Source of the DNA: Alkalihalophilus pseudofirmus
GTDB lineage: Bacteria; Bacillota; Bacilli; Bacillales; Bacillaceae_D
Assembly: GCF_029094545.1 (NCBI RefSeq)
Contig: NZ_CP117835.1
Span: forward strand, 1,902,001-1,966,000
DNA: 64,000 nucleotides
Direction of reading: 5' to 3'
Part shown: positions 3,816-53,020 of the stretch, one piece after another
Position numbering within the stretch: position 1 is the first letter of the stretch
Layout: the number at the start of each line of letters is the position of its first letter
Position numbers and translations under genes: made by a program
The notes under the pieces: model-generated
Databases searched by the model: none
What the model was told of the DNA's origin: nothing
Seen by the model: the letters and a program-made list of their open reading frames with translations, nothing else

Positions 3816-5042
3816 TTATTCATACCTTAATGCATCTACAGGCTGTAGATTTGACGCCTTTAATGATGGTAAAATTCCAAATACAATCCCTACTAACATG
3901 GAGAATATCAGTGACCCAACAATAGCAGGAATCGAAATCATAAATGGCATATTAATAATTGTTGATATAATCTTTGCAATGCCGATCCCACCAGCAATTC
4001 CAAGGACACCGCCTATACTAGTCAGCACGATCGCTTCCGTTAAAAATTGCAAGAGGATGATGTGACGCTTTGCACCAAGTGCTTTTTTGATGCCGATCTC
4101 TCTAGTTCGCTCTGTGACGGATACGAGCATAATATTCATGACCCCGATTCCCCCGACAAGCAAGGATATACTTGCGATCCCTCCGAGCAATAGGGCAAAA
4201 GCCATGTTAAATGCGGCGATCTCTTCTGCAATGGCTTGCAAGTCCATGACATTGTACATCGCCGTTTCCATCTCGGCAGGAGACAGGTCGCTATTTAACA
4301 AATCAGCTGCAATCATACCCGCTTCTTGTATATGTTCTGAAGATGTAGCTTGCACAGCAATCTGAGTCGGGGCATCAAATCCTTCGATAAACGGCCAAAC
4401 CCCACGTGGGAAGTACATTTTTGGCTCCGTCCAACCCCCGTAAAACATGCTTTCCTCTGTCATCTCTGTGAATATTCCTACGACGCGAAACGGGATCCCT
4501 TTGACTTCTATAAATTCACCAAGCGGGCTCTTATCTGGGAATAATTCTGTTTGAACATCTTCATTAATCATGACGACTTGAGCTGTTCCGGTTAGCTCAT
4601 TTTCGGTGAGAGGTCTGCCTTCTACGATGGTGATAGGAAAAAGATCAAAGTAGGCTTGATCCACTCCAATTGCTCTTGGGTAGGAAAACTGCGTTAAATG
4701 AAAGGCAGGTGCATTCCATGACTCATGATACAAAGAAATTCCATTTACTATATCGAGGCTCTCGATTTGTGCAACGGTTTCTTCTTTTACAGGGGGAGCA
4801 GAAAGGTAGGAAGAGGTATTATAATACCCTTCGCCTATCATGCTCTGCTCCTCATACACGACGTTTATCGTATTATTTCCCATCCCAACTAAGTTGCTTT
4901 TAAGCGCCTCGCTCTGTCCTTCAATCATGGACACAATCGCAATGATTGCCGCAATCCCAATGATGACACCAAGCATAGTTAGTGTGGAGCGCAGCTTATG
5001 AGCGAAAATGGATTGAAACGATATTCGAATATTCTCAAGCAC
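3816..5042 (-). CDS. MacB/YknZ-like ABC transporter permease
   Basis: The protein is 408 residues from the chosen start. It has an N-terminal membrane helix, a MacB-type extracytoplasmic core (about residues 40-270), and a C-terminal FtsX domain of three helices with the conserved GGIGVMNIMLVSVTERTREI loop. The start is placed at GTG 5042 because AAGGGAG lies about 8 bases upstream; the further-upstream GTG at 5063 has no such site. It overlaps the ATPase gene by 8 bases, indicating coupling. Family members move lipophilic compounds or peptides; B. subtilis YknWXYZ protects against the SdpC toxin. Confidence 0.88.
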   Translation of the reverse strand: MLENIRISFQSIFAHKLRSTLTMLGVIIGIAAIIAIVSMIEGQSEALKSNLVGMGNNTINVVYEEQSMIGEGYYNTSSYLSAPPVKEETVAQIESLDIVNGISLYHESWNAPAFHLTQFSYPRAIGVDQAYFDLFPITIVEGRPLTENELTGTAQVVMINEDVQTELFPDKSPLGEFIEVKGIPFRVVGIFTEMTEESMFYGGWTEPKMYFPRGVWPFIEGFDAPTQIAVQATSSEHIQEAGMIAADLLNSDLSPAEMETAMYNVMDLQAIAEEIAAFNMAFALLLGGIASISLLVGGIGVMNIMLVSVTERTREIGIKKALGAKRHIILLQFLTEAIVLTSIGGVLGIAGGIGIAKIISTIINMPFMISIPAIVGSLIFSMLVGIVFGILPSLKASNLQPVDALRYE

Positions 5043-42556: not shown

Positions 42557-42580
42557 ATGATGTGTAATGACTATTCTTCT

Positions 42581-42627
42581 TCAACTAACGCACCCAATAG
42601 TTTAAGTGTAATTATTCACAATCTTTA
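42581..42627 (+). repeat. Intergenic CCCGTTAG-type repeat, copy a
   Basis: CAACTAACGCACCCAATAG then TTTAAGTGTAATTATTCACAA. It shares the ACTAACGCACCC left arm with the IS110 junction at 44768 and the TTAAGTGTAATTATTCACAA right arm with the copy at 48377. The gap 42628-42811 holds nothing else clear besides a CACTTAAGT word at 42655. Confidence 0.7.
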
Positions 42628-42811
42628 CTTTCGAAAAGTATCAGCTACTAAATTCACTTAAGTAGTAAAGGTGATTTTCTCTGCCATAGTTATATCGTTT
42701 GTTATACATTTTTAAATCAAGAGTAATGGTTTTTTGGTATTATTTAATGTTGTAGGCAAAGATTATAAGAATACATAAATTAGCCTCCGTTGATACAATT
42801 AGCGCAATTTT

Positions 42812-42821
42812 CACTTAAGTG
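42812..42821. promoter_or_regulatory. CACTTAAGTG palindrome ahead of the MerR-type gene
   Basis: A perfect 10-bp palindrome 30 bases upstream of the MerR-type start; CACTTAAGT recurs at 42655-42663. A plausible autoregulatory operator. Confidence 0.35.
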
Positions 42822-42851
42822 GTACTGAGATTATTATTAAAGGAGTTATAA

Positions 42852-43691
42852 ATGAAAATTCAAAAAAAATATTATCGCATTGGTGAAATATCAGACATAT
42901 TCGGAATTCCAAAACAAACTTTAAGATATTACGATAAAATAGGTAAGTTTTCACCTGAATACACAGATGAAGAGAATGGATACAGGTATTACTCGCTAAG
43001 TCAACTGCAATATTTACACGCTTTAAAAGTTTTTAAAATTATGGGCGTCTCTTCTAGTGATATTGATAAATACATGTCTACAGATTGGGATTTGGAAAAA
43101 TTAAAAGAAAATTACGAGATGCAAATAAAGCGTATTAATAACGATATTAGAAATCTAATTTCCATGAAAAAAAGCCTTAAGGGAAAAATTCATCACTTCA
43201 ATGAATTAAGAAAGAATAATATAAACGATATTACTTTAGTTGAAAGAGATGAAAAAATAATTTATACAAAGGATGTACAGATTAATTCCGTTGAGGAGCA
43301 AGAAATAGAGTATTATAAAGCTTTTGAATCTCTTGCTGAAGCAAATCAGCTTATACAAGTTAACCCTGGTTTTATTGTCAAAAAAACATCTTTTGTAAAC
43401 GATAGCACTATTGCTTCCTCACTTTTCTTAGATATACCTAACAACATTCCAAATGATTATAATACTTCTATAATTCCTAAAGGGTATTTTTTATCGCTAT
43501 ATATAGAAGATAGTTATTCAAATTCTCCTATTTATTATAAGAAACTTAAGGATTACATAGAAGAAAATGAAATAGAAATACTAAGTGATGTTTTTGAATT
43601 TTGTTATACGGTCTTACCATCAAAAGAAAATGATTTAAGTTCCTGGGAATTGTTAGTAAGAATTAACCCGTTGACCTTACAGTTACTGTAG
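42852..43691 (+). CDS. MerR-family regulator with effector-binding C-terminus (BltR/BmrR-like)
   Basis: 279 residues. N-terminal MerR HTH (YRIGEISDIFGIPKQTLRYYDKIGKF ... NGYRYYSLSQLQYLHALKVFKIMG shown in two parts), a coiled-coil dimerisation helix (about 85-125), and a GyrI-like effector domain (about 130-279). Such regulators sense lipophilic compounds. AAAGGAG precedes ATG. It reads toward a flavodoxin-fold gene 100 bases downstream on the same strand, its likely target. Markedly AT-rich. Confidence 0.85.
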   Translation: MKIQKKYYRIGEISDIFGIPKQTLRYYDKIGKFSPEYTDEENGYRYYSLSQLQYLHALKVFKIMGVSSSDIDKYMSTDWDLEKLKENYEMQIKRINNDIRNLISMKKSLKGKIHHFNELRKNNINDITLVERDEKIIYTKDVQINSVEEQEIEYYKAFESLAEANQLIQVNPGFIVKKTSFVNDSTIASSLFLDIPNNIPNDYNTSIIPKGYFLSLYIEDSYSNSPIYYKKLKDYIEENEIEILSDVFEFCYTVLPSKENDLSSWELLVRINPLTLQLL

Positions 43692-43791
43692 GGTTTATAG
43701 TATAAACAACCACTTATTAAAATATTGGTTTAAAGTGGTTAACACAAGGTGAAAACCTAAAATAAAATTATAGATAAGGAGCCAAGAAAAA

Positions 43792-44385
43792 ATGATTAAA
43801 GTAGCAATTGTTTACCATAGTGAAGGCGGACGAACTAAAAAACAAGCAGAAGCGATTCGTCGTGGTGCTGAGTCTTTAGAGGGGACAGAAGTTCTTTTTC
43901 TTACAACTCAAGAAGCAAGCGAACGTCTTGAAGATTTAGATAGGGCAGATGCGATTGTCTTTGGATCTCCAACCTATTTGGGAAGTATGTCTGCTGAAAT
44001 GAAAAGATTTCTTGAATCTGGAATTGATCGTTGGTTTTCTAGAGCGTGGCAAAATAAAATTGCCGGGACTTTTACACATTCAACAAACTTCTCAGGCGAC
44101 AAGGTGAATACACTTATTGGTATGTTATTTAATGCGATGCAACAAGGTATGATCTATGTTAGTCTTGGACAACTACCAGCTTCAAATGAACCTGATTCTA
44201 TGAAGAGCCTTGTTGGTCCAAGTCCAGATGCTATCAACCGGATTGATGGAAGTATTGGCGCAATGGCAACAAGTTTTGAAGTTAAAGCTGATGAAGCACC
44301 ATCGAAAGGCGATATTCTCACAGCAGAAGCATATGGTCGTAGAATTGCGGATATCACAGCACAGTTTGCTCGTGGTCGTCAGTAA
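43792..44385 (+). CDS. WrbA-like flavodoxin-fold NAD(P)H oxidoreductase
   Basis: 197 residues. FMN-binding phosphate loop VYHSEGGRTKKQAEAI, IVFGSPTYLGSMSAEMKRFLE and FTHSTNFSGDK match the WrbA/flavodoxin group. It probably reduces quinones or nitro compounds. AAGGAG 10 bases before ATG. Codon use and GC content are higher than in the preceding MerR gene. Intrinsic terminator at 44402. Confidence 0.88.
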   Translation: MIKVAIVYHSEGGRTKKQAEAIRRGAESLEGTEVLFLTTQEASERLEDLDRADAIVFGSPTYLGSMSAEMKRFLESGIDRWFSRAWQNKIAGTFTHSTNFSGDKVNTLIGMLFNAMQQGMIYVSLGQLPASNEPDSMKSLVGPSPDAINRIDGSIGAMATSFEVKADEAPSKGDILTAEAYGRRIADITAQFARGRQ

Positions 44386-44401
44386 TTAACTTTTAATAAA
44401 T

Positions 44402-44435
44402 AAAGCCCTTTTGATTTATATATCAAAGGGCTTTT
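44402..44435 (+). terminator. Intrinsic terminator of the WrbA-like gene
   Basis: Stem AAAGCCCTTTTGAT/ATCAAAGGGCTTT followed by TT, 16 bases after the stop. From here to 44767 I see only an unsupported 72-codon frame (44463-44681) and no RNA gene. Confidence 0.9.
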
Positions 44436-44767
44436 TGTGTCATTTTTCAAAATAAGAGAAAAGTGAAAAGGCGTTATCAATCAACCGAGACACGAGCTTG
44501 TACATTTCTATTTGATATTATCTTCTTCAGTATAGATAGGAAATATTCAAGTGAAAGCATGGCAACAACAAGTGTCGGATTAGAATTTTCACTTGTAGAA
44601 TACTGTAAGATCAAAGCTGGCGATATTATCCTCCTAATAGTGACCATGCTCCTACCAGTCCATCAAGATGCACAATATTAGTTATATCACCTTAGCCTCC
44701 TGTAAACACATAATAATTTTTCGTAGATTACAATAAAGAAATGTGGGGACATTCTCCACACTCTTTT

Positions 44768-44785
44768 TAAACTAACGCACCCGTT
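44768..44785 (+). repeat. Intergenic repeat, left arm at the IS110 junction
   Basis: AAACTAACGCACCCGTT matches the left arm of the intergenic repeat; the sequence then departs from the repeat (CGTAATATAAGG), marking the probable left end of the IS110 element. Confidence 0.65.
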
Positions 44786-44849
44786 CGTAATATAAGGTTA
44801 GCCAGATAAGAAAATATTTCTGGTTGACCTTATTTTTTATGGTCATATG

Positions 44850-45020
44850 ATAGCGGTAGTCGGGGTAGAACGTCGCACCCGTGGGACTCGATCCCGTTAG
44901 CTAAACTGTTCGCCCCCTACTTGTATGAACATGTTTCAGGCTGGTTGGGACATAGAAATGATCCCGTTTAACAAGCGAACCTATGACACTACAAGAAGCT
45001 CTAGGGGTTACCGACTAATT
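44850..45020 (+). ncRNA. Candidate IS110 bridge RNA
   Basis: Between the left end and the transposase lies a structured segment with two loops. Loop 1 is closed by GTAG-GGGG/CCCC-CTAC (44856-44865 and 44913-44920) and contains GATCCCGTTAG and CTAAACTG. Loop 2 is closed by CATAG/CTATG (44951-44955 and 44981-44985) and contains GATCCCGTTTA and CGAAC. IS110 elements encode such an RNA, whose loops pair with target and donor DNA. Loop 1 carries CCCGTTAG and the complement of AGTTTAG, as in the repeat that was hit. Confidence 0.6.
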
Positions 45021-45042
45021 TATTTCTAGGAGTTGATAAACA

Positions 45043-46281
45043 ATGAATCCAGTCATCGGTCTGGATGTCTCAAAAGGAGAAAGTCAGGTTCAAGCCTTCT
45101 TGGACAAGGGAAAGCCTTATCGTAAGAGTTTCAGTATTAAACATAATCGTGAGGGTCTCGAGACATTCTTGGCATTTCTTCAAGAAGTCGAACAAGCAGC
45201 ACAAGGACAACCACCTTCTGTGGTTTTAGAGTCGACAGGTCATTATCATCTACCTGTGATTCAGTTTCTGGAGGACCAAAAGTATGTGTATATTGTCATC
45301 AACCCACTCATTTCGCATCGAGCGAAAAGTTCGAGCTTACGCAAGGTAAAAACAGATGCCGTTGATGCGTATCATTTGTGCGAGCTTTACTACAAGGAGG
45401 AGCTTGAACCCTATAAAAAACGAGGGATTCAACTCTTAAATCTTCGTAATTTAACCAGACAACAAGAGACGATCGCTGAAGTATCGGCGAATACGAAACT
45501 ACAACTCCATTCCTTATTGGATCAGGTGTTTCCTGAATACAGAGGCGTATTTGGTAGTTTGTATTCGAAGGTATCGTTATTAACCCTGCAGGCTTTTCCA
45601 ACTTCAGAGGCTGTCTTACAAGTGGATGAGTCTGAATTGGTCGAAAAGATCGCTTCGTTATGTAAAAGTCGTTCTGAGAGGTGGGCCATAGAAAAAGCAC
45701 AAAAGCTGCGAGAGGCTGCCTTGCGTAACCCGTTTCAAAAGAATTTGTATGAGAGTCATATTTTTAATTTGGAGATGTTAACGAACATCGTTCTTCAATA
45801 CCAAGAGCACCTATCCAACATCGCAACTGAAATAGATGCCCTTGCGAAAGAAATTGAAGAATATCAGATTATCCAATCTATTCCCGGAATTGGAGAAAAG
45901 ATCGCCGCCACGATTATTTCTGAGATCGGTGAGATAGATCGGTTTAATCACCCAAAGAAGTTGGTTGCATTCGCTGGAGTCGACCCTAGTGTTTACTCTT
46001 CAGGAAAGTTTACAGCTTCCGTTAATCGGATAACTAAAAGAGGCTCTTCCAGACTGAGACATGCCTTATTTATGGCCGTTCAATGCGGGATTAGAGATTC
46101 TCGTAAGCAAAAGACAACCGACGAAATTATTGCACGGAACAAGAGACTCAGAGAGTTTTACGATAAAAAACGCGAAGAAGGTAAACCATTTAGAGTCGCT
46201 GTCATTGCTTGTGTCAATAAACTCTTACATTGGATTTATGCTTTACTGAAAAGCAAAACACCTTTCCAAGATGTAGCTTGA
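45043..46281 (+). CDS. IS110-family transposase (bridge-RNA-guided recombinase)
   Basis: 412 residues. N-terminal RuvC-like DEDD domain with Asp in GLDVSKGESQVQAF, Glu in VVLESTGHYH and Asp in RKVKTDAVDAYHL. A coiled-coil region follows, then the C-terminal Transposase_20 domain with SIPGIGEKIAATIISEIG, LVAFAGVDPS and TASVNRITKRGSSRLRHAL, which includes the family's catalytic serine. All key residues look intact. CTAGGAG precedes ATG. Such enzymes cut and join at the site specified by the RNA encoded next to them. Confidence 0.95.
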   Translation: MNPVIGLDVSKGESQVQAFLDKGKPYRKSFSIKHNREGLETFLAFLQEVEQAAQGQPPSVVLESTGHYHLPVIQFLEDQKYVYIVINPLISHRAKSSSLRKVKTDAVDAYHLCELYYKEELEPYKKRGIQLLNLRNLTRQQETIAEVSANTKLQLHSLLDQVFPEYRGVFGSLYSKVSLLTLQAFPTSEAVLQVDESELVEKIASLCKSRSERWAIEKAQKLREAALRNPFQKNLYESHIFNLEMLTNIVLQYQEHLSNIATEIDALAKEIEEYQIIQSIPGIGEKIAATIISEIGEIDRFNHPKKLVAFAGVDPSVYSSGKFTASVNRITKRGSSRLRHALFMAVQCGIRDSRKQKTTDEIIARNKRLREFYDKKREEGKPFRVAVIACVNKLLHWIYALLKSKTPFQDVA

Positions 46282-46413
46282 TAGCTATATCTAACTAGAT
46301 AGACCAAGACCTTCCAAAAAGTACAGATTGGTAGGTTATTTGGTATACTCATTTTTAGTATAGCATGTGTAATTTCATTTTTTTATTGAAATTGTTGACA
46401 AACTATTAGCTGG

Positions 46414-46441
46414 TTTACTTTAAGTACATTATTTCACAAAG
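46414..46441 (+). repeat. Intergenic repeat, right arm at the IS110 junction
   Basis: TTTACTTTAAGTACATTAT and TTCACAAA resemble the arm AGTTTAAGTGTAATTATTCACAAA of intact copies with a few changes. It marks the probable right end of the IS110 element; 46442-46533 holds nothing recognisable. Confidence 0.5.
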
Positions 46442-46533
46442 CCATTAATCATTATAAAATCTAACTATGCTTGCATTGAAAATTAAAATAAGTCCCCAAC
46501 TTCTGCACTAGCTACTTTTATAAATATATTAGT

Positions 46534-46908
46534 TTACCAACTGACTCCATAAGAATTTTGAAATTGTTCAGTCAATTGAGGGTGGTCTGTAAGGCTAAAT
46601 ACATCTAATACCGTCCTATTGTTTTGATAAACTCGAACTATAAACTCTTCACCGTCAGCCTTAGCTAAATAAAATTTTCGCAATTGTGGAGAGTCTTCTG
46701 TTCCAACATATTTAAATGATATCTCACTGCTTGAGCTAAGGACTTCAACCATATTTGCTTCGAGAGTCCTTTGTTGTTGAGCGTTTGCAAATGCAATTAT
46801 TCCAACAAAAAATATTAAAGAAATAACAATAAAACCAATCATACCTTTAGCAATACTAACTTCATTACCAGTAACAACTTTGGGTTTTCTATTAACCTCC
46901 GTTTGCAT
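46534..46908 (-). CDS. Uncharacterised single-pass membrane protein
   Basis: 124 residues. A polar N-terminus, one membrane helix (about residues 22-42, GMIGFIVISLIFFVGIIAF), then a soluble domain of about 80 residues with alternating beta-type segments (SEISFKYVGTED, KFYLAKADGEEFIVRVYQ). I do not recognise the family. AGGAGG precedes ATG by 8 bases, so translation is well supported. First of a run of small minus-strand genes separated by related repeats. Confidence 0.7.
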   Translation of the reverse strand: MQTEVNRKPKVVTGNEVSIAKGMIGFIVISLIFFVGIIAFANAQQQRTLEANMVEVLSSSSEISFKYVGTEDSPQLRKFYLAKADGEEFIVRVYQNNRTVLDVFSLTDHPQLTEQFQNSYGVSW

Positions 46909-47061
46909 ACCAACACCTCCTATGCTATATTACTAAAAAAATTCCAGTTATACCATTTAATTAGCTATTATTCACTAAATTTCCTTAATTTAGAGTTAGC
47001 TACTAGTAAATTAAATTAACATGCTCCTTTAACTTAAAATCATTTTCATTTTATTGACAAT

Positions 47062-47091
47062 AAAAAAAGCAATGCCATGTTCAGCGTTGCT
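47062..47091 (-). terminator. Intrinsic terminator after the 47101-47346 gene
   Basis: AGCAACGC and GCATTGCT pair on the minus strand, followed by seven T residues; 10 bases after the stop. Confidence 0.75.
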
Positions 47092-47100
47092 CAGGTAGTG

Positions 47101-47346
47101 TTATTTTCTACTCGTTATGAATAAATTTTGAGAAAAATAGTAAGCTAATGTTGCGAGTGATAAAGTTGCCAGTAACGGGATTATAGAAGTCTGCCCAAAC
47201 ATTACTTCTTGATTTACACCAATCTTCGTTGAAGAAAAATCAGGAGTATAGAAAATCGTGAGAACCCACCCTGATATAATTTGTAATACGATAAATAGAA
47301 GCATAAAACTAAATATAAATACAATAAATTTTCTCATTTTATTCAC
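47101..47346 (-). CDS. Small two-helix membrane protein
   Basis: 81 residues with two membrane helices (about 6-32 and 54-74) joined by a polar loop YTPDFSSTKIGVNQEVMFG, and a basic tail TSRK. Family not recognised. AAAGGGAGTG precedes ATG. Own terminator downstream; separated from the next gene by a composite repeat. Confidence 0.65.
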   Translation of the reverse strand: MNKMRKFIVFIFSFMLLFIVLQIISGWVLTIFYTPDFSSTKIGVNQEVMFGQTSIIPLLATLSLATLAYYFSQNLFITSRK

Positions 47347-47410
47347 TCCCTTTAAATTTTATACGAAACGCCTAGAAGTAAGGTTTCAATTTAATCCAAT
47401 ATTTAACAAC

Positions 47411-47547
47411 ATTGCCCTTTTGGTTTAATATTAATTTTCTTTTCGTTAACAAAGAGAAATGCATCCCTTATTGAAGGATGCTGCTTCGTTAATTCATTGA
47501 AAAATGGCGATAACCATTAATCAGCTATCGCACTCCGTTAGTTTAAA
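47411..47547 (-). repeat. Composite intergenic repeat with two hairpins, copy b
   Basis: On the plus strand: GCCCTTTTGGTTTAATATTAA, hairpin GCATCCCTT-attg-AAGGATGC (47461-47481), CTGCTTCGTTA, hairpin GCGATA/TATCGC (47508-47531), then CTCCGTTAGTTTAAA. Read on the minus strand the hairpins act as terminators for the gene ending at 47538, whose TAA stop lies inside the CCGTTAG motif. Related units are at 49964, 50565 and 51119. Confidence 0.75.
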
Positions 47548-48194
47548 TGACATTCTTTACTTAGGACACGCCACTCTTCTTCAACTTTGAATTGTTCTCC
47601 TGTAAGTTCGAATATATAATTCTGTGGTTTTGCAGTTTTAAATAATTCCGGAAAAATTTCTTGAGTATAGTTTTCGTGTAAACATGCGCTCTCCCAACCA
47701 GTAAACACAAGAAAACCATTACTTTCCCTTTGTAAGAAAGCGATTGTTCCTCCAAGCATCCCTTCGGACTCTATCATCCCTATATTCCAAACATTTTTTT
47801 GCATATCTATAAAGTTCTTAAGTTGGTCTTCTTTCACTTGTGTCAATGTCACACGTATATATTGACAATCTTTTAAAATATTAAGAATATTATCTTCTGA
47901 GCCTGGCACCTTTAGTTTCTCATCATATAATGTCACATCTATTGATTCATAAGTGTTTTCCTGGCCGGAATTGACAAAGATTTGATCATGTTGCCCTTTC
48001 ATAAACTGTTGATAATCGACTTGATTCTCCCAAAAAGAATAGATCCATGCAGTTAATGGTTGTTTGATACTCCATCCACCAATTTGGCCTAAAAAACCTT
48101 TTACCTTACTAAGATGTCCCCATTGCTTTTGATATTCTTGAAATGCTTCTCTTTGATCATCTTTAACAATACATGAAATTCTCTTTATAATCAT
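47538..48194 (-). CDS. YdbC-like DUF4937 protein (dimeric alpha-beta barrel fold)
   Basis: 218 residues, no signal peptide. Two ABM-like ferredoxin-fold halves are visible: residues 1-100 (IIKRISCIVKDDQREAFQEYQ ... GFLGQIGGW, SFWENQVDYQQFMKGQHDQI) and about 105-210 (CQYIRVTLTQVKEDQLKNFI ... GMLGGTIAFLQR). This is the layout of the DUF4937/YdbC family related to antibiotic-biosynthesis monooxygenase-type proteins. Catalytic role unknown. AGGTTATGG precedes the ATG. The stop codon falls within a repeat. Confidence 0.75.
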   Translation of the reverse strand: MIIKRISCIVKDDQREAFQEYQKQWGHLSKVKGFLGQIGGWSIKQPLTAWIYSFWENQVDYQQFMKGQHDQIFVNSGQENTYESIDVTLYDEKLKVPGSEDNILNILKDCQYIRVTLTQVKEDQLKNFIDMQKNVWNIGMIESEGMLGGTIAFLQRESNGFLVFTGWESACLHENYTQEIFPELFKTAKPQNYIFELTGEQFKVEEEWRVLSKECHLN

Positions 48195-48376
48195 TGACCA
48201 TAACCTCCAAAAACTTATACTGAATTTATTGTATAACCCGATAACTCGAAAAACCTTATTACCACATAAGTAAAAAGGAAAGCAAGGGGAATTATATTGC
48301 CCTTATCACAAGTTAAATTTTCGCACCCTTTACTTTTATTACAACAAGAAGAAACGATCACCCTTTATTGATCAAG

Positions 48377-48414
48377 TGCACCCGTTAGCTTAAGTGTAAT
48401 TATTCACAAACTTT
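48377..48414 (-). repeat. Intergenic CCCGTTAG-type repeat, copy c
   Basis: GCACCCGTTAGCTTAAGTG, then TAATTATTCACAAACTTT. It is closest to copy a and, in CCCGTTAGCT, identical to ten bases of loop 1 of the candidate bridge RNA. It lies 16 bases beyond the stop of the hydrolase gene at 48431. Confidence 0.75.
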
Positions 48415-48430
48415 GGAAATATTATGATGT

Positions 48431-49204
48431 TTACAAACTTTTAATAAATTGATGGATGTGTTGGTTGACTTGTTCGGGATTATCCAGATTTGTTGCATGA
48501 TGTGCATTATCAATAACAAAAAGTTGCGACCCTTTTATTCTATTATTCATATAGCCTTGTTGGCTTTTGGTCATGGTATCATTATCCCCATGTAAAATTA
48601 GAGTTGGACAAGTTACTTTATCTAAGTCATCACTACTATCCATCCTTGTTACAGTATTCCATATACGAACCCAGTTATTGTATGACATTGAACTAACTGC
48701 ATCCTCAATATATTGTTTGTTATTACTATTAAACTTAGATAAACTACGAGCTTGGAGCTTTGCAGAAATAGTTATTGGTATTAAACGATTTGACCAACGA
48801 TTGATAGGAACAAACATTTTTTCATACCAATTGAAATTCATTGTAAAAGGAGTACCAATCAAGATAAGCGATTTCACAAACTCCGGAAAGCGAATTGCGG
48901 TCTGTAAAGAAATATGCCCACCCATAGATAAACCACAAAGGTTAGCTTTCTTAATCTTTAAGTGATTGAGTAAACCGATTAAATCTTTACTAAAATCTTC
49001 AGAATCAACTTTTCCAGGAGGCAGCGATGAATATCCGTGTCCACGAACGTCCCATATAATTGTTTTATAAGATTTAGAAAAGATATCAACTTGTTGTTTC
49101 CATTGTTTATGATTCCATGACGCTCCGTGAGTAAATACTATAGGTTCTCCTTCACCTACAACTTCATAGTAAATCTCAGTATTGTTAATAATACACTTTG
49201 GCAT
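48431..49204 (-). CDS. Alpha/beta-hydrolase
   Basis: 257 residues from ATG 49204, with AAGGAGGGGG 4-8 bases upstream; the ATG at 49222 precedes that site. Oxyanion HG in PIVFTHGASWNHKQW, nucleophile elbow LCGLSMGGHIS, acid in LILHGDNDTMT and His in IDNAHHATNLD form a complete Ser-Asp-His triad. Resembles carboxylesterase/BPHL-type hydrolases and 3-oxoadipate enol-lactonase-like enzymes; substrate unknown. Confidence 0.88.
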   Translation of the reverse strand: MPKCIINNTEIYYEVVGEGEPIVFTHGASWNHKQWKQQVDIFSKSYKTIIWDVRGHGYSSLPPGKVDSEDFSKDLIGLLNHLKIKKANLCGLSMGGHISLQTAIRFPEFVKSLILIGTPFTMNFNWYEKMFVPINRWSNRLIPITISAKLQARSLSKFNSNNKQYIEDAVSSMSYNNWVRIWNTVTRMDSSDDLDKVTCPTLILHGDNDTMTKSQQGYMNNRIKGSQLFVIDNAHHATNLDNPEQVNQHIHQFIKSL

Positions 49205-49339
49205 TTTCCCCCTCCTTTTCATTCCTCATGTTCAATGAGCGTAGAGACAATTTTCCTTCGCTAAAGCTACTCGTTCCTTGAATAAGTTATTTAAAAGCAT
49301 AGGATCTAGTTCTTATAATAATAGCTCCTAATCCATTTG

Positions 49340-49546
49340 CTATAATTTAATTAAAGGTTGTTTTGTTACATTTCTAAAAACCTGGAATAAACTACTTATT
49401 CCAATAATCACACCTAATACTATGTACATCATTGCTCTTTCCATTTCTTCGTATACTAAGACAGAAGAAACAATAACCCCTATTGCAAATAGAATTATAA
49501 AAATATGAAAGCCGATTTTTAGTCTTCTAACTGATTGTTCACTCAT
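49340..49546 (-). CDS. Small two-helix membrane protein
   Basis: 68 residues from ATG 49546, preceded by TTGGAGGT; the ATG at 49579 lies upstream of that site. Two membrane helices (about 10-31 and 38-57) and a basic tail (FRNVTKQPLIKL). Family not recognised. The repeat-like spacing of small genes continues here, but no full repeat copy follows this gene. Confidence 0.65.
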   Translation of the reverse strand: MSEQSVRRLKIGFHIFIILFAIGVIVSSVLVYEEMERAMMYIVLGVIIGISSLFQVFRNVTKQPLIKL

Positions 49547-49691
49547 GAGTAATACCTCCAAGTCATTAAATTTTAACATAAATATCCAAATTGCTTATTA
49601 AAGAAACCTGTTCCTTTACTCAATAAGAGTTGCCATACCCCCTTTTGGAAGATGGCACTTCTTTAGGGAAGAAAAAATCTACTTATAGGAG

Positions 49692-49910
49692 TTACTTATT
49701 TTTTCTAAACTTGCTTATAAAAATGGTTGTGTAGAAAACACAAATCATTAAAACAAAAGTTATAGTAAAAATAAATTTGTAATCAAGTTCTCGATTTAAT
49801 AACATATCATTTAAAACCACGAAAAAGGCATAAGCAAGGAAAACCGTATGGAAAGAATTGCGATACGCTTTTAGATTTATGTTGTTTGATTGGGTGCTAT
49901 TGGCTTGCAA
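49692..49910 (-). CDS. Small two-helix membrane protein
   Basis: 72 residues from TTG 49910, with GGAGGTGAG about 6 bases upstream. Polar, Asn/Gln/Ser-rich first 18 residues, two membrane helices (about 20-40 and 46-66) and a basic end SKFRKNK. Family not recognised. Confidence 0.6.
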   Translation of the reverse strand: MQANSTQSNNINLKAYRNSFHTVFLAYAFFVVLNDMLLNRELDYKFIFTITFVLMICVFYTTIFISKFRKNK

Positions 49911-49963
49911 TCTATCTCACCTCCATAAGTAAACTTCAACTACTTCTCTAATTTCTTCTTGTA

Positions 49964-50056
49964 TTAACCTGCCCCTTTAGTTTAACATTAATTTCCTTTT
50001 CTTTGACATAGAAAAAGCATTCCTTGGTGAAGGAATGCACCCATTAGCTGAAGAAT
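49964..50056 (-). repeat. Composite intergenic repeat with terminator hairpin, copy d
   Basis: TTAACCTGCCCCTTTAG, TTTAACATTAATTTCC, hairpin GCATTCCTT-ggtg-AAGGAATGC (50018-50038), then ACCCATTAGCTGAAG. On the minus strand the hairpin runs into TTTTTC and so terminates the gene ending at 50056. Confidence 0.75.
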
Positions 50057-50508
50057 TAATTTGATACACTATAAAATTTGTAACCATCCACAATTTGAGG
50101 AAACTCTTGGTTTGTTACTTCTAACCAATTGGTTTCCACTATGGTATCGTTATTTGCATTTATTTCTGCAACCGTTTTATTTGATTCTCTCGTAACAAAG
50201 TAAATATTCACTTCTTTTACTACATCCAAATGTTCCTTAGAATAATCCTTTACAGCTTCCAGTGATGCTTTCGTTTCAACGCCCACATAGAATTCAGCAT
50301 CTTCATTACTCCACGTTTCAGAATTTGGAAGCATTTTAACTTCAATGTTTAATTCTCCATCTGCAAAATCAACAACTGAAAAGTCATAAAAATTTTTACT
50401 ATTTTCTTTTAAGTAAGCTTGTATTTTTTCTTCTTCGCTTTGGTAGCAAGCAGATAACATTAAAGTAACAGACAATAATAATAACTTGAACAAAATATAC
50501 TTTTTCAT
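50056..50508 (-). CDS. Putative lipoprotein
   Basis: 150 residues from ATG 50508 (AAGAGGG upstream). Signal peptide MKKYILFKLLLLSVTLML followed by lipobox LSAC, so the mature protein is lipid-anchored at about residue 20. The mature part is acidic and lacks motifs that I recognise; it is about 130 residues of mixed alpha/beta type (DFADGELNIEVKMLP, VDGYKFYSVSN). Terminated by the repeat-borne hairpin at 50018-50038. Confidence 0.75.
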   Translation of the reverse strand: MKKYILFKLLLLSVTLMLSACYQSEEEKIQAYLKENSKNFYDFSVVDFADGELNIEVKMLPNSETWSNEDAEFYVGVETKASLEAVKDYSKEHLDVVKEVNIYFVTRESNKTVAEINANNDTIVETNWLEVTNQEFPQIVDGYKFYSVSN

Positions 50509-50564
50509 AGCTTCCCTCTTCCCCATCTTTAATAAGACAAACGAAAATTTCCACTGCTTTTTCT

Positions 50565-50641
50565 GAACTAACCTGCCCGTTACTTCAATAATAAGGAAAG
50601 GCGATAACCCTTAATCAGCTATCGCACCCGAGTTAATAATT
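50565..50641 (-). repeat. Composite intergenic repeat with hairpin, copy e
   Basis: TGAACTAACCTGCCCGTTA, AATAAGGAAAGGC, hairpin GCGATAACC.../GCTATCGC (50602-50626), then ACCCGAGTTAATAA. The hairpin equals the second hairpin of copy b. On the minus strand it precedes CTTTCCTT and closes the gene ending at 50650. Confidence 0.75.
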
Positions 50642-50649
50642 TTAGTAGG

Positions 50650-51048
50650 CTATTTAGTAGATATGTGAATCTCGATATGACCATTAGGATAATATTTTTC
50701 AAAATCAAATGAATAAGCTCTCTTTAAATCCCCGTTCTCCTCTTGTTCCCATATCTGCTTCCAAGTATTAAGTATTCCATTTTCATTCAATGAATCCACT
50801 TTAAAAATCTCGTATTTACTTATGCTTGGAATTTTAATTGTTTTTGCGTTATTACTACTTTCTACTGCTACACTTACTGTATAATCCCCTCTATAATCAC
50901 TCTCGTATTCATGGTACAAACCATATGTAACCTCATCCTGATTTAATAAAGCACTTGATGCCTCTTTCCACATCTCTGTGATCTTTTGCATGATAGCTTT
51001 GTCTTCAAAATTATTAGTTCTCACACTTTTGATGATCGTTAGGTTCAT
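50650..51048 (-). CDS. GyrI-like/AraC effector-binding domain protein
   Basis: 132 residues without a DNA-binding part. The layout (SVRTNNFEDKAIMQKITEMWKEA, YGLYHEYESDYRGDYTVSVAVE, YEIFKVDSLNENGILNTWKQIW, FDFEKYYPNGHIEIHI) is that of the SOUL/GyrI effector-binding fold, including the closing ExYxP-like segment EKYYPNG. Stand-alone members can bind small drugs or act on DNA gyrase; role here unknown. Followed by repeat copy e. Confidence 0.8.
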   Translation of the reverse strand: MNLTIIKSVRTNNFEDKAIMQKITEMWKEASSALLNQDEVTYGLYHEYESDYRGDYTVSVAVESSNNAKTIKIPSISKYEIFKVDSLNENGILNTWKQIWEQEENGDLKRAYSFDFEKYYPNGHIEIHISTK

Positions 51049-51118
51049 TTGATTAGCCTCACAATATGATTATTTATTTTTCTTTCAACATAATAAATAT
51101 ATTACCTTCTTCTTTAAC

Positions 51119-51203
51119 TCTTCTGTTCCATTAGTTTAAAATTAATTTCTTTTTAGTTGACAAAGAAAAAGCATCCCTTGTTAAGGAATGATACCCGTTA
51201 GTG
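51119..51203 (-). repeat. Composite intergenic repeat with terminator hairpin, copy f
   Basis: TTCTGTTCCATTAGTTTAAA, ATTAATTTC, TTGACAAAGAAAAAGC, hairpin GCATCCCTT/AAGGAATG (51171-51190), ATACCCGTTAGTGG. The closest relative is copy d. The 58-residue gene at 51181-51357 reads through the CCCGTTAG part and stops in the hairpin. Confidence 0.75.
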
Positions 51204-51357
51204 GATTAAAAAATTTGATTAAACAACTCCCCAATAAAGAAAACTCATAGTAAAAAATAATCACAAATGTCGAAAGTACTTTTGGTAATTTACCATAAAA
51301 GTATATTAAAGCTGACCCTATTAGTATGTGAATACAAGCAAAAAGAATTAGACTCAT
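51181..51357 (-). CDS. Small membrane protein, 58 residues
   Basis: ATG at 51357 with AGAGGTAGG 3-8 bases upstream opens a 58-codon frame: MSLILFACIHILIGSALIYF, then a loop YGKLPKV, a second hydrophobic stretch LSTFVIIFYY, and a tail ending PLTGIIP. The last seven codons come from the intergenic repeat (CCCGTTAG read backwards), so the repeat has become part of the coding end. Family not recognised. Confidence 0.5.
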   Translation of the reverse strand: MSLILFACIHILIGSALIYFYGKLPKVLSTFVIIFYYEFSLLGSCLIKFFNPLTGIIP

Positions 51358-51410
51358 TTACCTACCTCTTGCCTAAATTGTACCATTTTCATTTTGATAA
51401 TTAACCTTTT

Positions 51411-51442
51411 TTCACTAACCTGCTTCGTTACTGCAATAAGAT
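51411..51442 (-). repeat. Intergenic repeat fragment, copy g
   Basis: TTCACTAACCTGCTTCGTTA followed by CTGCAATAAGATAAAG matches the CTAACCTGCCCGTTA arm of copy e and the CTGCTTCGTTA of copy b. No hairpin is attached. The rest of 51358-51579 holds nothing else recognisable. Confidence 0.55.
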
Positions 51443-51579
51443 AAAGAGCAATCCCTGCTTCTTCAATGGTGGGGAGATAAGCTGTTTGCACTAAGGAGAT
51501 TGTTCATCTATGTACACTTCATTTCAATATGATCATATTGATCTCCTATAAAAGGCGTTAAAACAAAAGGCCAAAAATA

Positions 51580-51621
51580 TACAGACAAAAGGGATCTAGT
51601 TCATTAATCCTTGTGTCTGTA
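51580..51621. terminator. Bidirectional intrinsic terminator after the VanZ-like gene
   Basis: TACAGACA/TGTCTGTA outer stem with an inner AAGGGAT/ATCCTT pairing; T-runs follow on both strands. Ten bases beyond the stop at 51632. Confidence 0.8.
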
Positions 51622-51631
51622 CTTTTTAATT

Positions 51632-52207
51632 TTATTTAATCATTGTAGATTCATTTTTTTCATTGAGAATTATAGGTGTGATTAATGGTCTTATTATTAA
51701 ATATACAAGATAACCAACAGCAACTCCTAATGTGTTTAAAATAAGGTCATCTATGTTAAAAGTTCTATATGTAACACCTAAAACTAGAGATAGTACCAAT
51801 TGAGTTAATTCAATTCCTAAAGAAACACAAAGTCCATATAATAGTGTTCTATAAAATGAGTTTCTCTTTAAAATTAAAGGTAAATAAATACCTAAGGGTA
51901 AAAGTAAAATTAAATTCCCTAGAGTTGAAAAGGAGAGTAACCCTTGTTGTGTAAAAATAGATTGAAAGGGAATAAAGTTGTTTTTAAGCTCCATAATTTC
52001 TGCCATGAATTTTGAATCAGGACCAATTGGTATAGGGAAAATTGTATAATTAATTACGTAAAGTAGGTATATGCTAAAACTATAAATTAAGAGTCTAAAA
52101 GTCAATTTAGGCTTATTCTTACTTTTCCAATAAAATATATTTTCACCAATAATAAACAAAAAAAATAGTGGTAATCCAACAAATTTAAACATCAACAAAT
52201 CAATCAT
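51632..52207 (-). CDS. VanZ-family membrane protein
   Basis: 191 residues with about five membrane helices. Typical VanZ-like strings: NFIPFQSIF, LGNLILLLPLGIYLPLI, SLGIELTQLVL and RTFNIDDLILNTLGVAVGY. VanZ itself gives low-level teicoplanin resistance in enterococci; most chromosomal members have unknown roles at the cell envelope. GGGAAGTG precedes ATG. It lies within the run of small minus-strand genes. Confidence 0.85.
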   Translation of the reverse strand: MIDLLMFKFVGLPLFFLFIIGENIFYWKSKNKPKLTFRLLIYSFSIYLLYVINYTIFPIPIGPDSKFMAEIMELKNNFIPFQSIFTQQGLLSFSTLGNLILLLPLGIYLPLILKRNSFYRTLLYGLCVSLGIELTQLVLSLVLGVTYRTFNIDDLILNTLGVAVGYLVYLIIRPLITPIILNEKNESTMIK

Positions 52208-52230
52208 TGTGATTCACTTCCCTACTAAAG

Positions 52231-52252
52231 CCAAGCTGAATTTAGCTTGGCT
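52231..52252 (-). terminator. Terminator after the secreted-protein gene
   Basis: Perfect 8-bp stem GCCAAGCT/AGCTTGGC with loop GAATTT, T-rich (TTTAG) on the minus side; 20 bases past the stop at 52273. Confidence 0.7.
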
Positions 52253-52272
52253 TTTACAAATTATTTAATGTA

Positions 52273-52644
52273 TTAGTTAGTAATAGTAGCACGACCTATT
52301 AAAGTTGAATTATCATTTGCTTTTGTCCAACGGAAATAGGTCCCTGACGAAGGTACGGACCAACTTGAAGTGGCAGCAGAGAACCTATCTTGAGTTTTCA
52401 TGCCATACGACTTACCATTCTTGTCCATAAGAGTGATATAGAATACAGTGGGACTTCCCTGCTTCCAACCCGGATTTGATTTGTTGAATGTTCGGACACT
52501 AACACTTCCAGATTTCAGGTTATAATCAGGTGAATTTAAAGCTACTTTAAACTCAAAAGAACGCTCCCACGTCGCAGCACCTACTACAAATGGTAGACAT
52601 AAAACTGTTGCGAAGACTAAAACTGCAATTATTTTTTTATACAT
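52273..52644 (-). CDS. Small secreted protein
   Basis: 123 residues. Clear Sec signal peptide (KKIIAVLVFATVLCLPFVVG) with probable cleavage after AA-type residues near 23-24. The mature part of about 100 residues is Ser/Thr/Lys-rich and beta-type (SFEFKVALNSPDYNLKSGSV, FYITLMDKNGKSYGMKT, SGTYFRWTKAND). I do not recognise the family. No catalytic motif. The ATG is preceded by AGAAGGAAT. Confidence 0.7.
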   Translation of the reverse strand: MYKKIIAVLVFATVLCLPFVVGAATWERSFEFKVALNSPDYNLKSGSVSVRTFNKSNPGWKQGSPTVFYITLMDKNGKSYGMKTQDRFSAATSSWSVPSSGTYFRWTKANDNSTLIGRATITN

Positions 52645-52865
52645 TTCTACTATTCCTTCTCAATCTTTTTCTGAGGATCCTCGAAATACATAATAAGTAA
52701 ATTTTACAAATAATAGAATAGGTCTAAAGTTTCGTTTAGATAAATTTACCAAAAAACGAATGAAATGTTATTAATAATTATGTTTCTGAGAGTGGTATTC
52801 TGAAGGAAATATGCTGTGTATACGTGTATACCTTGTGTTACAACCAGATAGAATAACTAAAACAG

Positions 52866-52907
52866 TTAAACTGCCCCGTTAGTTTAAGAACAGCACTTCA
52901 CAAACTA
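52866..52907 (-). repeat. Intergenic CCCGTTAG-type repeat, copy h
   Basis: TTAAACTGCCCCGTTAG, then TTTAAGAACAGCACTTCACA. It keeps the CCCGTTAGTTTAAG core and the TTCACAAACT tail. It lies in a 593-base gene-free stretch (52645-53237) that also has two hairpins. Confidence 0.7.
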
Positions 52908-52980
52908 CCTCTATAATATTAACATATAATTTCCATTTACCTTCAACAACAGCCCCGATTAGCAGAAGTTTTAGCACTGA

Positions 52981-53020
52981 TTTTAACAACACCGCATAAA
53001 TTTGTGAGGTGCTGTTAAAA
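52981..53020. repeat. Long inverted repeat (hairpin) in the gene-free stretch
   Basis: TTTTAACAACACC (52981-52993) and GGTGCTGTTAAAA (53008-53020) pair over 12 of 13 positions around a 14-base loop. No gene abuts it. It may be a terminator or a remnant of a mobile repeat. Confidence 0.6.

What the first reader, a model, noticed from the sequence alone, without database searches (positions are those of the whole stretch)
44784..46414. IS110 element whose bridge-RNA loop matches the repeat it has entered
The non-coding 5' part of the element folds into two loops. Loop 1 holds GATCCCGTTAG (44890-44900) and CTAAACTG (44901-44908). The chromosomal repeat reads CACCCGTT then AGTTTAAG, so loop 1 carries the left half in direct sense and the complement of the right half, as a target-binding loop should. 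Loop 2 holds CGAAC, complementary to GTTCG at the left IS junction (44783-44787), as a donor-binding loop should. The element's flanks are the two arms of that repeat. This suggests an RNA-guided element specialised for a multi-copy genomic repeat, as IS621 is for REP elements.
Basis: partly seen in the sequence, partly recalled or inferred. Interest (0 to 1): 0.85.

Follow-up and report, generated by a model that had tools for sequence, protein, structure and literature searches.

The report
RNA-guided jumping gene hitting hairpin repeats
This is a small mobile DNA element whose own guide RNA carries a copy of the short repeat it inserts into, and among relatives in other Bacillus-like bacteria the guide and the repeat change together, which suggests how such elements retarget themselves in nature.

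Summary
The finding is real and mostly read correctly. The 1,631-bp element (44784-46414) encodes an IS110 transposase. This Alkalihalophilus genome has three identical copies and one diverged copy, all four in the repeat GCACCCG-TT-A[GC]T. The 5' non-coding regions of 70 of 80 fetched relatives support a two-loop bridge RNA (11 of 28 pairs with two-sided changes). Right target guide, donor guides and TT core fit the published IS621 scheme, though the right target of the window copy itself matches its guide at only 2 of 4 letters. The left guide word changed at least 21 times on the transposase tree; in 8 tree-independent comparisons the flank changed with it (7 in some pairings, never the other way). 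The element is a new member of a known kind. The repeat is more unusual: it is an end of a ~96-bp intergenic element whose ends also flank a Xer-like tyrosine recombinase gene, and two gene blocks are exchanged at the same points. An integron-like cassette system in Bacillaceae is possible but unproven.

The parts
44784..46414 (+). IS110-family element, one unit including one copy of the TT core
   Evidence: identical over these coordinates in three copies with different flanks; no inverted repeat links the two ends
44767..44783 (+). left half of the interrupted repeat: arm TTAAACTAAC + GCACCCG (left target)
   Evidence: sequence; GCACCCG matches the left target guide 7 of 7
44784..44785 (+). 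TT core, left copy
   Evidence: TT in 58 and AT in 12 of 70 relatives; the motif used to place left ends allowed only TT, TC and AT, and at least one locus left out (L149) reads CT
46415..46424 (+). TT core, right copy, plus right target ACTTTAAG
   Evidence: sequence; the uninterrupted copy of a gene block reads CCG-TT-AGTTTAAATG (window 47535-47549), the IS-filled copy L217 reads GGT-TT-AGTTTAAATG
44859..45015 (+). bridge-RNA region with target loop and donor loop
   Evidence: alignment A1 of 57 sequences and pair counts
44875..44883 (+). left target guide GCACCCG followed by TG at the core position
   Evidence: best covarying window; 58 of 70 loci match at >=6 of 7
   Evidence: columns 28-32 with 40-44, three pairs with changes on both sides; no covariation with flank
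44899..44906 (+). right target guide AGCT, core-pairing AA, handshake guide AC
   Evidence: covaries with the right flank: 94 of 144 vs shuffle mean 75.0, 0 of 20,000, 36 distinct combinations
44940..44947 (+). left donor guide GCTGGT + TG
   Evidence: direct copy of the right end GCTGGT (46409-46414)
44975..44981 (+). right donor guide GCG, core-pairing AA, then CC
   Evidence: complement of TT-CG at the left end
45043..46281 (+). IS110 transposase, 412 aa
   Evidence: Pfam, NCBIfam, alignment to ISCro4, IS621 matched equally well
47529..47546 (+). uninterrupted repeat site (CGCACTCCGTTAGTTTAA)
47538..48384 (-). gene block (218-aa ORF, minus strand) bounded by two repeat sites; second copy at G000:C1:2050719
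   Evidence: 98.9% identical; alignment starts exactly at 47538 (TT of the first site) and runs to 48414, ~30 nt past the second site, because the sequences right of that site are alike
48376..48394 (+). repeat site at the other end of that block
49960..50055 (+). ~96-bp intergenic element: CTGCCCC-TTTAGTTTAACATT ... GCACCC-ATTAGCTGAA; the IS110 target is one of its ends
   Evidence: 14 matches in G000; matches in 17 of 41 family genomes
50573..50630 (+). second kind of short element between the same two kinds of ends
51122..51206 (+). further short element; its CTG (to 51125) is where a block shared with contig C3 of same-species genome G009 (L193) ends

Best explanation
It is an IS110-group insertion sequence that makes a bridge RNA (about 44859-45015) from its left end. 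[quoted passage not shown] Its donor loop pairs with the joined ends of the excised circle (GCTGGT-TT-CGTAAT). The transposase then exchanges strands at the TT dinucleotide. SHOWN here: element ends, target repeat, guide-flank covariation, conserved two-loop fold, transposase domains. INFERRED from IS621: transcription, the circle, RNA binding, order of strand exchange. The same family, with altered guide letters, sits in variants of this repeat across Bacillaceae.
For: Three identical copies and one 71% copy, all in the repeat and in one orientation relative to it. Left guide vs left flank, best of two offsets: 430 of 490 letters against 316.5 in shuffles, 0 of 20,000; 44 distinct combinations, 254 of 308 against 184.5, 0 of 20,000. 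Tree-corrected (GCACC guide vs GCACC flank, 68 rows): 8 independent pairs, the same way in 8 of 8 in nearly all of 200 random pairings and 7 with one undecided in the rest, never opposite; p 0.008-0.016; the full guide word changed at least 21 times. L143/L144 differ by one letter in the 248-nt 5' region, the guide letter (GCACCCG/GCACCTG), and their flanks differ by the same letter. Right guide: RTG base A with right-target T in 11 of 12, other RTG base with T in 3 of 55, Fisher p 3e-9, 67 rows, not tree-corrected; on the tree only 3 independent pairs. Fold. Layout of guides and core as in IS621, AC after the right target guide as its handshake bases (passages of PMC11208160 and PMC11208158).
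Against: No RNA or activity data. The single-sequence fold is not special (z 0.18). 12 of 70 loci match the left guide at fewer than 6 of 7 letters, among them L108 (flank TTAGCTGG, no repeat), L111 (flank resembles the start of the transposase gene) and two with N in the flank. Many loci of the CTGCCC class need the one-base shift. The window copy matches its right guide at only 2 of 4 letters. No right-end/left-end junction of the predicted form was found in 225 loci. The base after the right donor guide's AA is G in 27 of 57 sequences and then does not pair with a G 5' of the core, so the handshake of the donor loop is not supported family-wide.
Confidence: 0.95

Rival explanations
1. The transposase recognises the hairpin repeat by protein contacts or DNA shape; the loop matches are relics of shared ancestry.
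For: The interrupted site is palindromic (TTAAACTAAC / GTTA.TTTAA) and the family is related, so guide and flank could both be conserved passively.
Against: Guide and flank change together in 8 tree-independent comparisons, never the other way, and one window of the scanned RNA region stands far out.
Confidence: 0.03
2. One reading: left target guide GATCCCGTTAG at 44890-44900.
For: CCCGTTAG is identical to the repeat's left half plus core.
Against: The segment pairs with the 5' arm in 99.6% of cells, three pairs with two-sided changes, shows no covariation with the flank (275 vs 277.9), and reads GATCCCG in the aligned TGGCCCG and GCGCCCG rows too.
Confidence: 0.01
3. (About the repeat, not the IS.) It is an ordinary intergenic terminator-like hairpin with no recombination role; shared blocks arise by homologous recombination or gene conversion, and the recombinase gene is there by chance.
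For: Central parts of many copies look like terminator hairpins (by eye). A test of arm pairing gave no significant signal in 15 elements, about four of them probably spurious. With a strict pattern only 5 of 14 recombinase genes or fragments of >=70% identity have a site within 350 nt.
Against: A 35-44-nt stretch of the element's left end lies just upstream of the recombinase gene in three genomes. Further loci (L168, L173, L180) show variant sites by eye that the pattern misses. Block boundaries fall at the sites in two cases. Strict sites near the IS: 29 on the IS strand, 0 on the other, in 293,189 flank bases.
Confidence: 0.5

Closest known systems
IS621 (IS110 group, E. coli) and its bridge RNA
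   Same: RNA region upstream of the transposase, two loops, LTG/RTG/LDG/RDG with the core in each, a base pair with the donor after the right target guide as in handshake guides, target is a dispersed palindromic repeat (passages of PMC11208160, PMC11208158)
   Different: core TT instead of CT, longer right target guide (AGCT plus core), other host group, and the repeat is the end of a recombinase-linked element rather than REP
IS1111-attC elements (ISKpn4, ISPst6) and ISPa11
   Same: IS1111-type elements that sit in recombination sites of another mobile system (attC) or in REP (passages of PMC11187229)
   Different: those have the RNA downstream of the gene and subterminal inverted repeats; this one has an upstream RNA, and no inverted repeat links its ends
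IS110 elements of Alkalihalophilus pseudofirmus OF4 plasmid pBpOF4-01 (NC_013792.1)
   Same: 99.9% identical DNA, same kind of target; the left flank of one copy (L077) is that of the copy on contig C2 of this genome (by eye)
   Different: the other copy (L078) has its own site; no paper on their target turned up (listings only)
Integron gene cassettes with attC sites (for the repeat, not the IS)
   Same: co-oriented sites between small genes, recombinase gene beside an array, block ends at a G^TT point (attC details recalled)
   Different: no integrase over the integron-integrase cut-off in 7 of 7 genomes, genes near the recombinase mostly run towards it (by reading), no covariation found for an attC-type fold; integrons are reported as extremely rare in Firmicutes (passages of PMC9024848)

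Membership tests
IS110 family, IS110 group | RuvC-like DEDD domain plus PF02371 domain | tested here: met
   catalytic residues only by reading one alignment
IS110 family, IS110 group | structured non-coding region upstream of the transposase gene | tested here: met
IS110 family, IS110 group | no long terminal inverted repeats | tested here: met
   24 inverted pairs found in the element, none joining left and right ends
bridge-RNA-guided elements | target loop covaries with the insertion site | tested here: met
   (left guide; right guide weaker)
bridge-RNA-guided elements | donor loop matches both element ends | tested here: met
   GCTGGT and GCGAA match the ends in the window; ends and guides are nearly invariant in the family, so covariation was not tested
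bridge-RNA-guided elements | RNA is made and bound, recombination is RNA-dependent | not testable with these tools
   needs experiments
REP-like dispersed repeats (target) | dispersed extragenic repeat in many copies | tested here: met
   14 matches to the 96-bp element in G000 with 22 of 31 candidates scored; 27 matches to CGCACCCGTTAGTT with up to 2 mismatches vs 14 for the reversed pattern
integron | IntI-type integrase | tested here: not met
   TIGR02249: 0 of 7 genomes over the cut-off of 265 bits; the array recombinase scores 94.4
integron | attC sites with R''-L''-L'-R' pairing | tested here: inconclusive
   15 elements; attC-type pairings reached by 318 and 766 of 1000 shuffles, local hairpins by 82 and 559
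integron | mobile single-gene cassettes | tested here: inconclusive
   two blocks with boundaries at the sites; no excision data

The most novel reading that the evidence does not exclude
The repeat is the recombination site of an integron-like gene-cassette system of Bacillaceae run by a Xer-like tyrosine recombinase that is itself carried between the two site types (CTGCCC-type and GCACCC-type), and this IS110 family lives by aiming its guide RNA at either end of that system, following the sites as they diverge.
Probability: 0.35. Interest if true: 0.85.

Novelty: new member of a known kind. Interest (0 to 1): 0.55.

Why it matters
The family is a natural series of bridge RNAs in which at least 21 guide changes can be read against the sites they hit. 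That gives a data set for the pairing rules of IS110 elements, including TT and AT cores, one-base shifts and longer right guides. It also points to a recombinase-linked system of intergenic sites that delimit exchanged gene blocks in Bacillaceae, which I did not find described, in a phylum where integrons are reported to be extremely rare (PMC9024848 passages).

Tried and rejected
The repeat searched with three Ts (GCACCCGTTTAGTT) gave no excess (14 matches with up to 2 mismatches against 28 for the reversed pattern); the repeat has two Ts before A. A reading with right end GCTGG instead of GCTGGT was dropped because the uninterrupted copy and repeats in other genomes read CG-TT-[AT]GTT; of 225 loci only L108 holds a GCTGG-TTCG junction. 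Orthologous empty site of the window copy: its left flank was not found in G008, G009, G010 (no positive control). Rfam on 44300-46900: two matches, both below the gathering score and outside the element. Integron integrase: see membership test. A first regular expression for the guides worked for 2 of 70 rows and was replaced by alignment columns. A first regular expression for whole short elements found only 2. A first count of strict sites (42) counted overlapping matches twice; recounted as 29, 28 by context, in 20 of 70 loci. Papers: listings; passages seen in PMC11208160, PMC11208158, PMC11187229, PMC2267715, PMC9024848, PMC8138268; no paper read whole. Those searches showed me nothing on this repeat or on an integron-like system in Bacillaceae; most subscription journals are not held. 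Rows dropped: 10 of 80 loci before the guide counts (L087, L096, L097, L110, L113, L127, L145, L147, L149 without a recognised left end; L154 without a recognised right end); of these L149 has a left end with core CT behind AACAACC, not tested, and L154 has GCACCCG-TT. L118 and L152 (N in flank) were also left out of the tree test. 57 sequences kept for the fold: of 70, L079 and L151 lacked the start motif and 11 were duplicates; the window's own sequence stood in for L077. The 80 loci are the best of 253 relatives.

Full report
WHAT IS THERE. Window 44784-46414 is a 1,631-bp IS110-family element. The genome (G000, 4.24 Mb in two contigs) has three identical copies, one of them on the smaller contig, and one diverged copy found as two pieces of 71% and 81% identity. 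The same-species genome G009 holds copies at the places of the OF4 plasmid record NC_013792.1, so the host is close to Alkalihalophilus pseudofirmus; that plasmid has a copy of 99.9% identity. The 412-aa transposase (45043-46281) has both IS110 domains, passes the cut-off of NCBI's 'IS110 family RNA-guided transposase' model and matches the solved ISCro4 and IS621 proteins (by my reading of the ISCro4 alignment the serine of the SG motif is Ser320). No inverted repeat links its ends.

ENDS AND TARGET. All four copies read GCACCCG|TT-CGTA.. on the left and ..GCTGGT|TTA[GC]T on the right. A gene block exists without the element (window 47538-48384) and, 98.9% identical, with it (L217): CCG-TT-AGTTTAAATG against GGT-TT-AGTTTAAATG. 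So the core is TT. In relatives the left core is TT in 58 and AT in 12 of 70; the motif with which I placed left ends allowed only TT, TC and AT, and one excluded locus (L149) has CT. In IS621 the second T is nearly invariant and the first base less so (PMC11208158 passage).

THE GUIDE. Of the 80 relatives returned (of 253) I could place both ends in 70. In alignment columns, the 7 letters at 44875-44881 (GCACCCG) match the flank at 7 of 7 positions in 36 of 70 loci and at 6 or 7 in 58 of 70, allowing a one-base shift. Guides: GCACCCG 26, CTGCCCG 14, GCGCCCG 8, TGGCCCG 5 and twelve rarer words. Scanning 7-nt windows from 44844 to the start codon, this one covaries best with the left flank: excess 113 letters, the overlapping window 71, the next independent one 19. 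On a tree of the transposase genes the full guide word changed at least 21 times. For GCACC against other, 8 independent pairs agree in nearly all of 200 random pairings, 7 with one undecided in the rest, none opposite (p 0.008-0.016). For CTGC (3 pairs), GCGCC (4) and TGGCC (1) the pairs are too few for a test. L143 and L144 are a clean natural pair: one letter in 248 of the 5' region differs, it is the guide letter, and the flank differs by the same letter. The right guide AGCT-AA covaries with the right flank in shuffles (94 of 144 against 75.0), but the tree gives only 3 independent pairs, and the window copy's own right target ACTT matches at 2 of 4 letters.

THE FOLD. Alignment A1 (57 sequences) supports six helices, 28 pairs; 99.7% of cells pair; 11 pairs change on both sides. 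Four of five measures exceed all 500 shuffles, the number of further pair types does not (130 of 500). Relatedness inflates such shuffles; the slid controls reach at most 4 pairs. The window sequence alone is not unusually stable (z 0.18).

HOW IT WORKS. [quoted passage not shown] The AC after the right target guide complements GT of the right end. In the published structure such bases are handshake guides that pair after strand exchange (PMC11208158 passage). This explains why AGCTAAAC looks complementary to the filled right junction (..GTTTAGCT) rather than to the empty site. Transcription, circle and catalysis are inferred.

THE REPEAT. The target is not a lone palindrome. It is an end of short elements, about 96 bp in one common kind (window 49960-50055), that run CTGCCC..TTTAGTTTAACATT ... 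GCACCC..TTAG. That kind gives 14 matches in G000 and occurs in 17 of 41 family genomes, up to 22 matches; these are lower bounds because at most 22 candidates per genome were scored. In 293,189 bases of flank from 70 loci, 29 distinct strict core sites (28 by context) lie on the IS strand and none on the other; they fall in 20 of the 70 loci. The window has 3 on the plus and 1 on the minus strand, none of them in 1-40000. Guides of the GCACCC class fit the right end, those of the CTGCCC class the left end; the Priestia locus L123 shows an element in a left end with the rest of the short element behind it.

A RECOMBINASE. In G000 a Xer-like tyrosine recombinase gene (L162:3238-4155) is followed by a site at 4203 and preceded by a stretch of the same left end as the short elements; so are its 97% relatives in G008 (same genus) and G016 (another genus). 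It scores 215.3 against a cut-off of 220 for NF040815 (Xer/integron-integrase-like) and far below cut-off for integron integrase. With a strict pattern, 5 of 14 recombinase genes or fragments of at least 70% identity have a site within 350 nt (one of them on the opposite strand), and of 14 with less than 60% identity two have a match, which is one sequence type that I take as chance. By eye some further loci of the first group carry variant sites that the pattern misses. Two gene blocks are shared between places with different neighbours and end at the sites: window 47538-48384 with G000:C1:2050719, and window 50601-51125 with contig C3 of G009 (96.4%). This suggests site-specific exchange. 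Against it: no fold covariation in 15 elements, no excision data, and genes near the recombinase mostly run towards it, opposite to integrons (by reading; integron layout recalled).

VERDICT. The IS is a new, well-supported member of the bridge-RNA IS110 elements with the left guide corrected. The repeat and its recombinase are the part that deserves follow-up.

Noticed in passing
L162:3238-4155 (G000:C1:2045237-2046154), L165, L166: Xer-like tyrosine recombinase gene between the two kinds of repeat end, 97% identical in another genus (G016).
   Followed up: partly
window 42580-53000: Some eight places with repeat sites or short elements, read by eye mostly on the plus strand, separate small, mostly minus-strand genes, like a cassette array.
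   Followed up: partly
L123 1181-5480 (Priestia abyssalis): Dense array: several sites a few hundred bases to 1 kb apart, some with a central terminator-like hairpin, between small minus-strand genes.
   Followed up: partly
L143 and L144: Elements whose 248-nt 5' regions differ by one letter, in the left guide, with the same one-letter difference in the flank (GCACCCG/GCACCTG): a natural retargeting pair.
   Followed up: yes
L081 and L093, left flanks: The element sits next to what looks like an inverted left end of a related IS in the same repeat, so both strands of the palindrome may be hit.
   Followed up: no
L108:2245-2262: Left flank is TTAGCTGG, a copy of the element's own right end, with one T fewer than the predicted circle junction.
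   Followed up: partly
one search hits in G025:C1, G022:C25 and G000:C2: Short elements keep one strand over tens to hundreds of kb (7 of 7 listed on G000:C2 minus; G025:C1 nearly all plus), possibly tied to replication direction.
   Followed up: no
G000:C1:3773371-3776743: Several tyrosine recombinase genes in a row.
   Followed up: no
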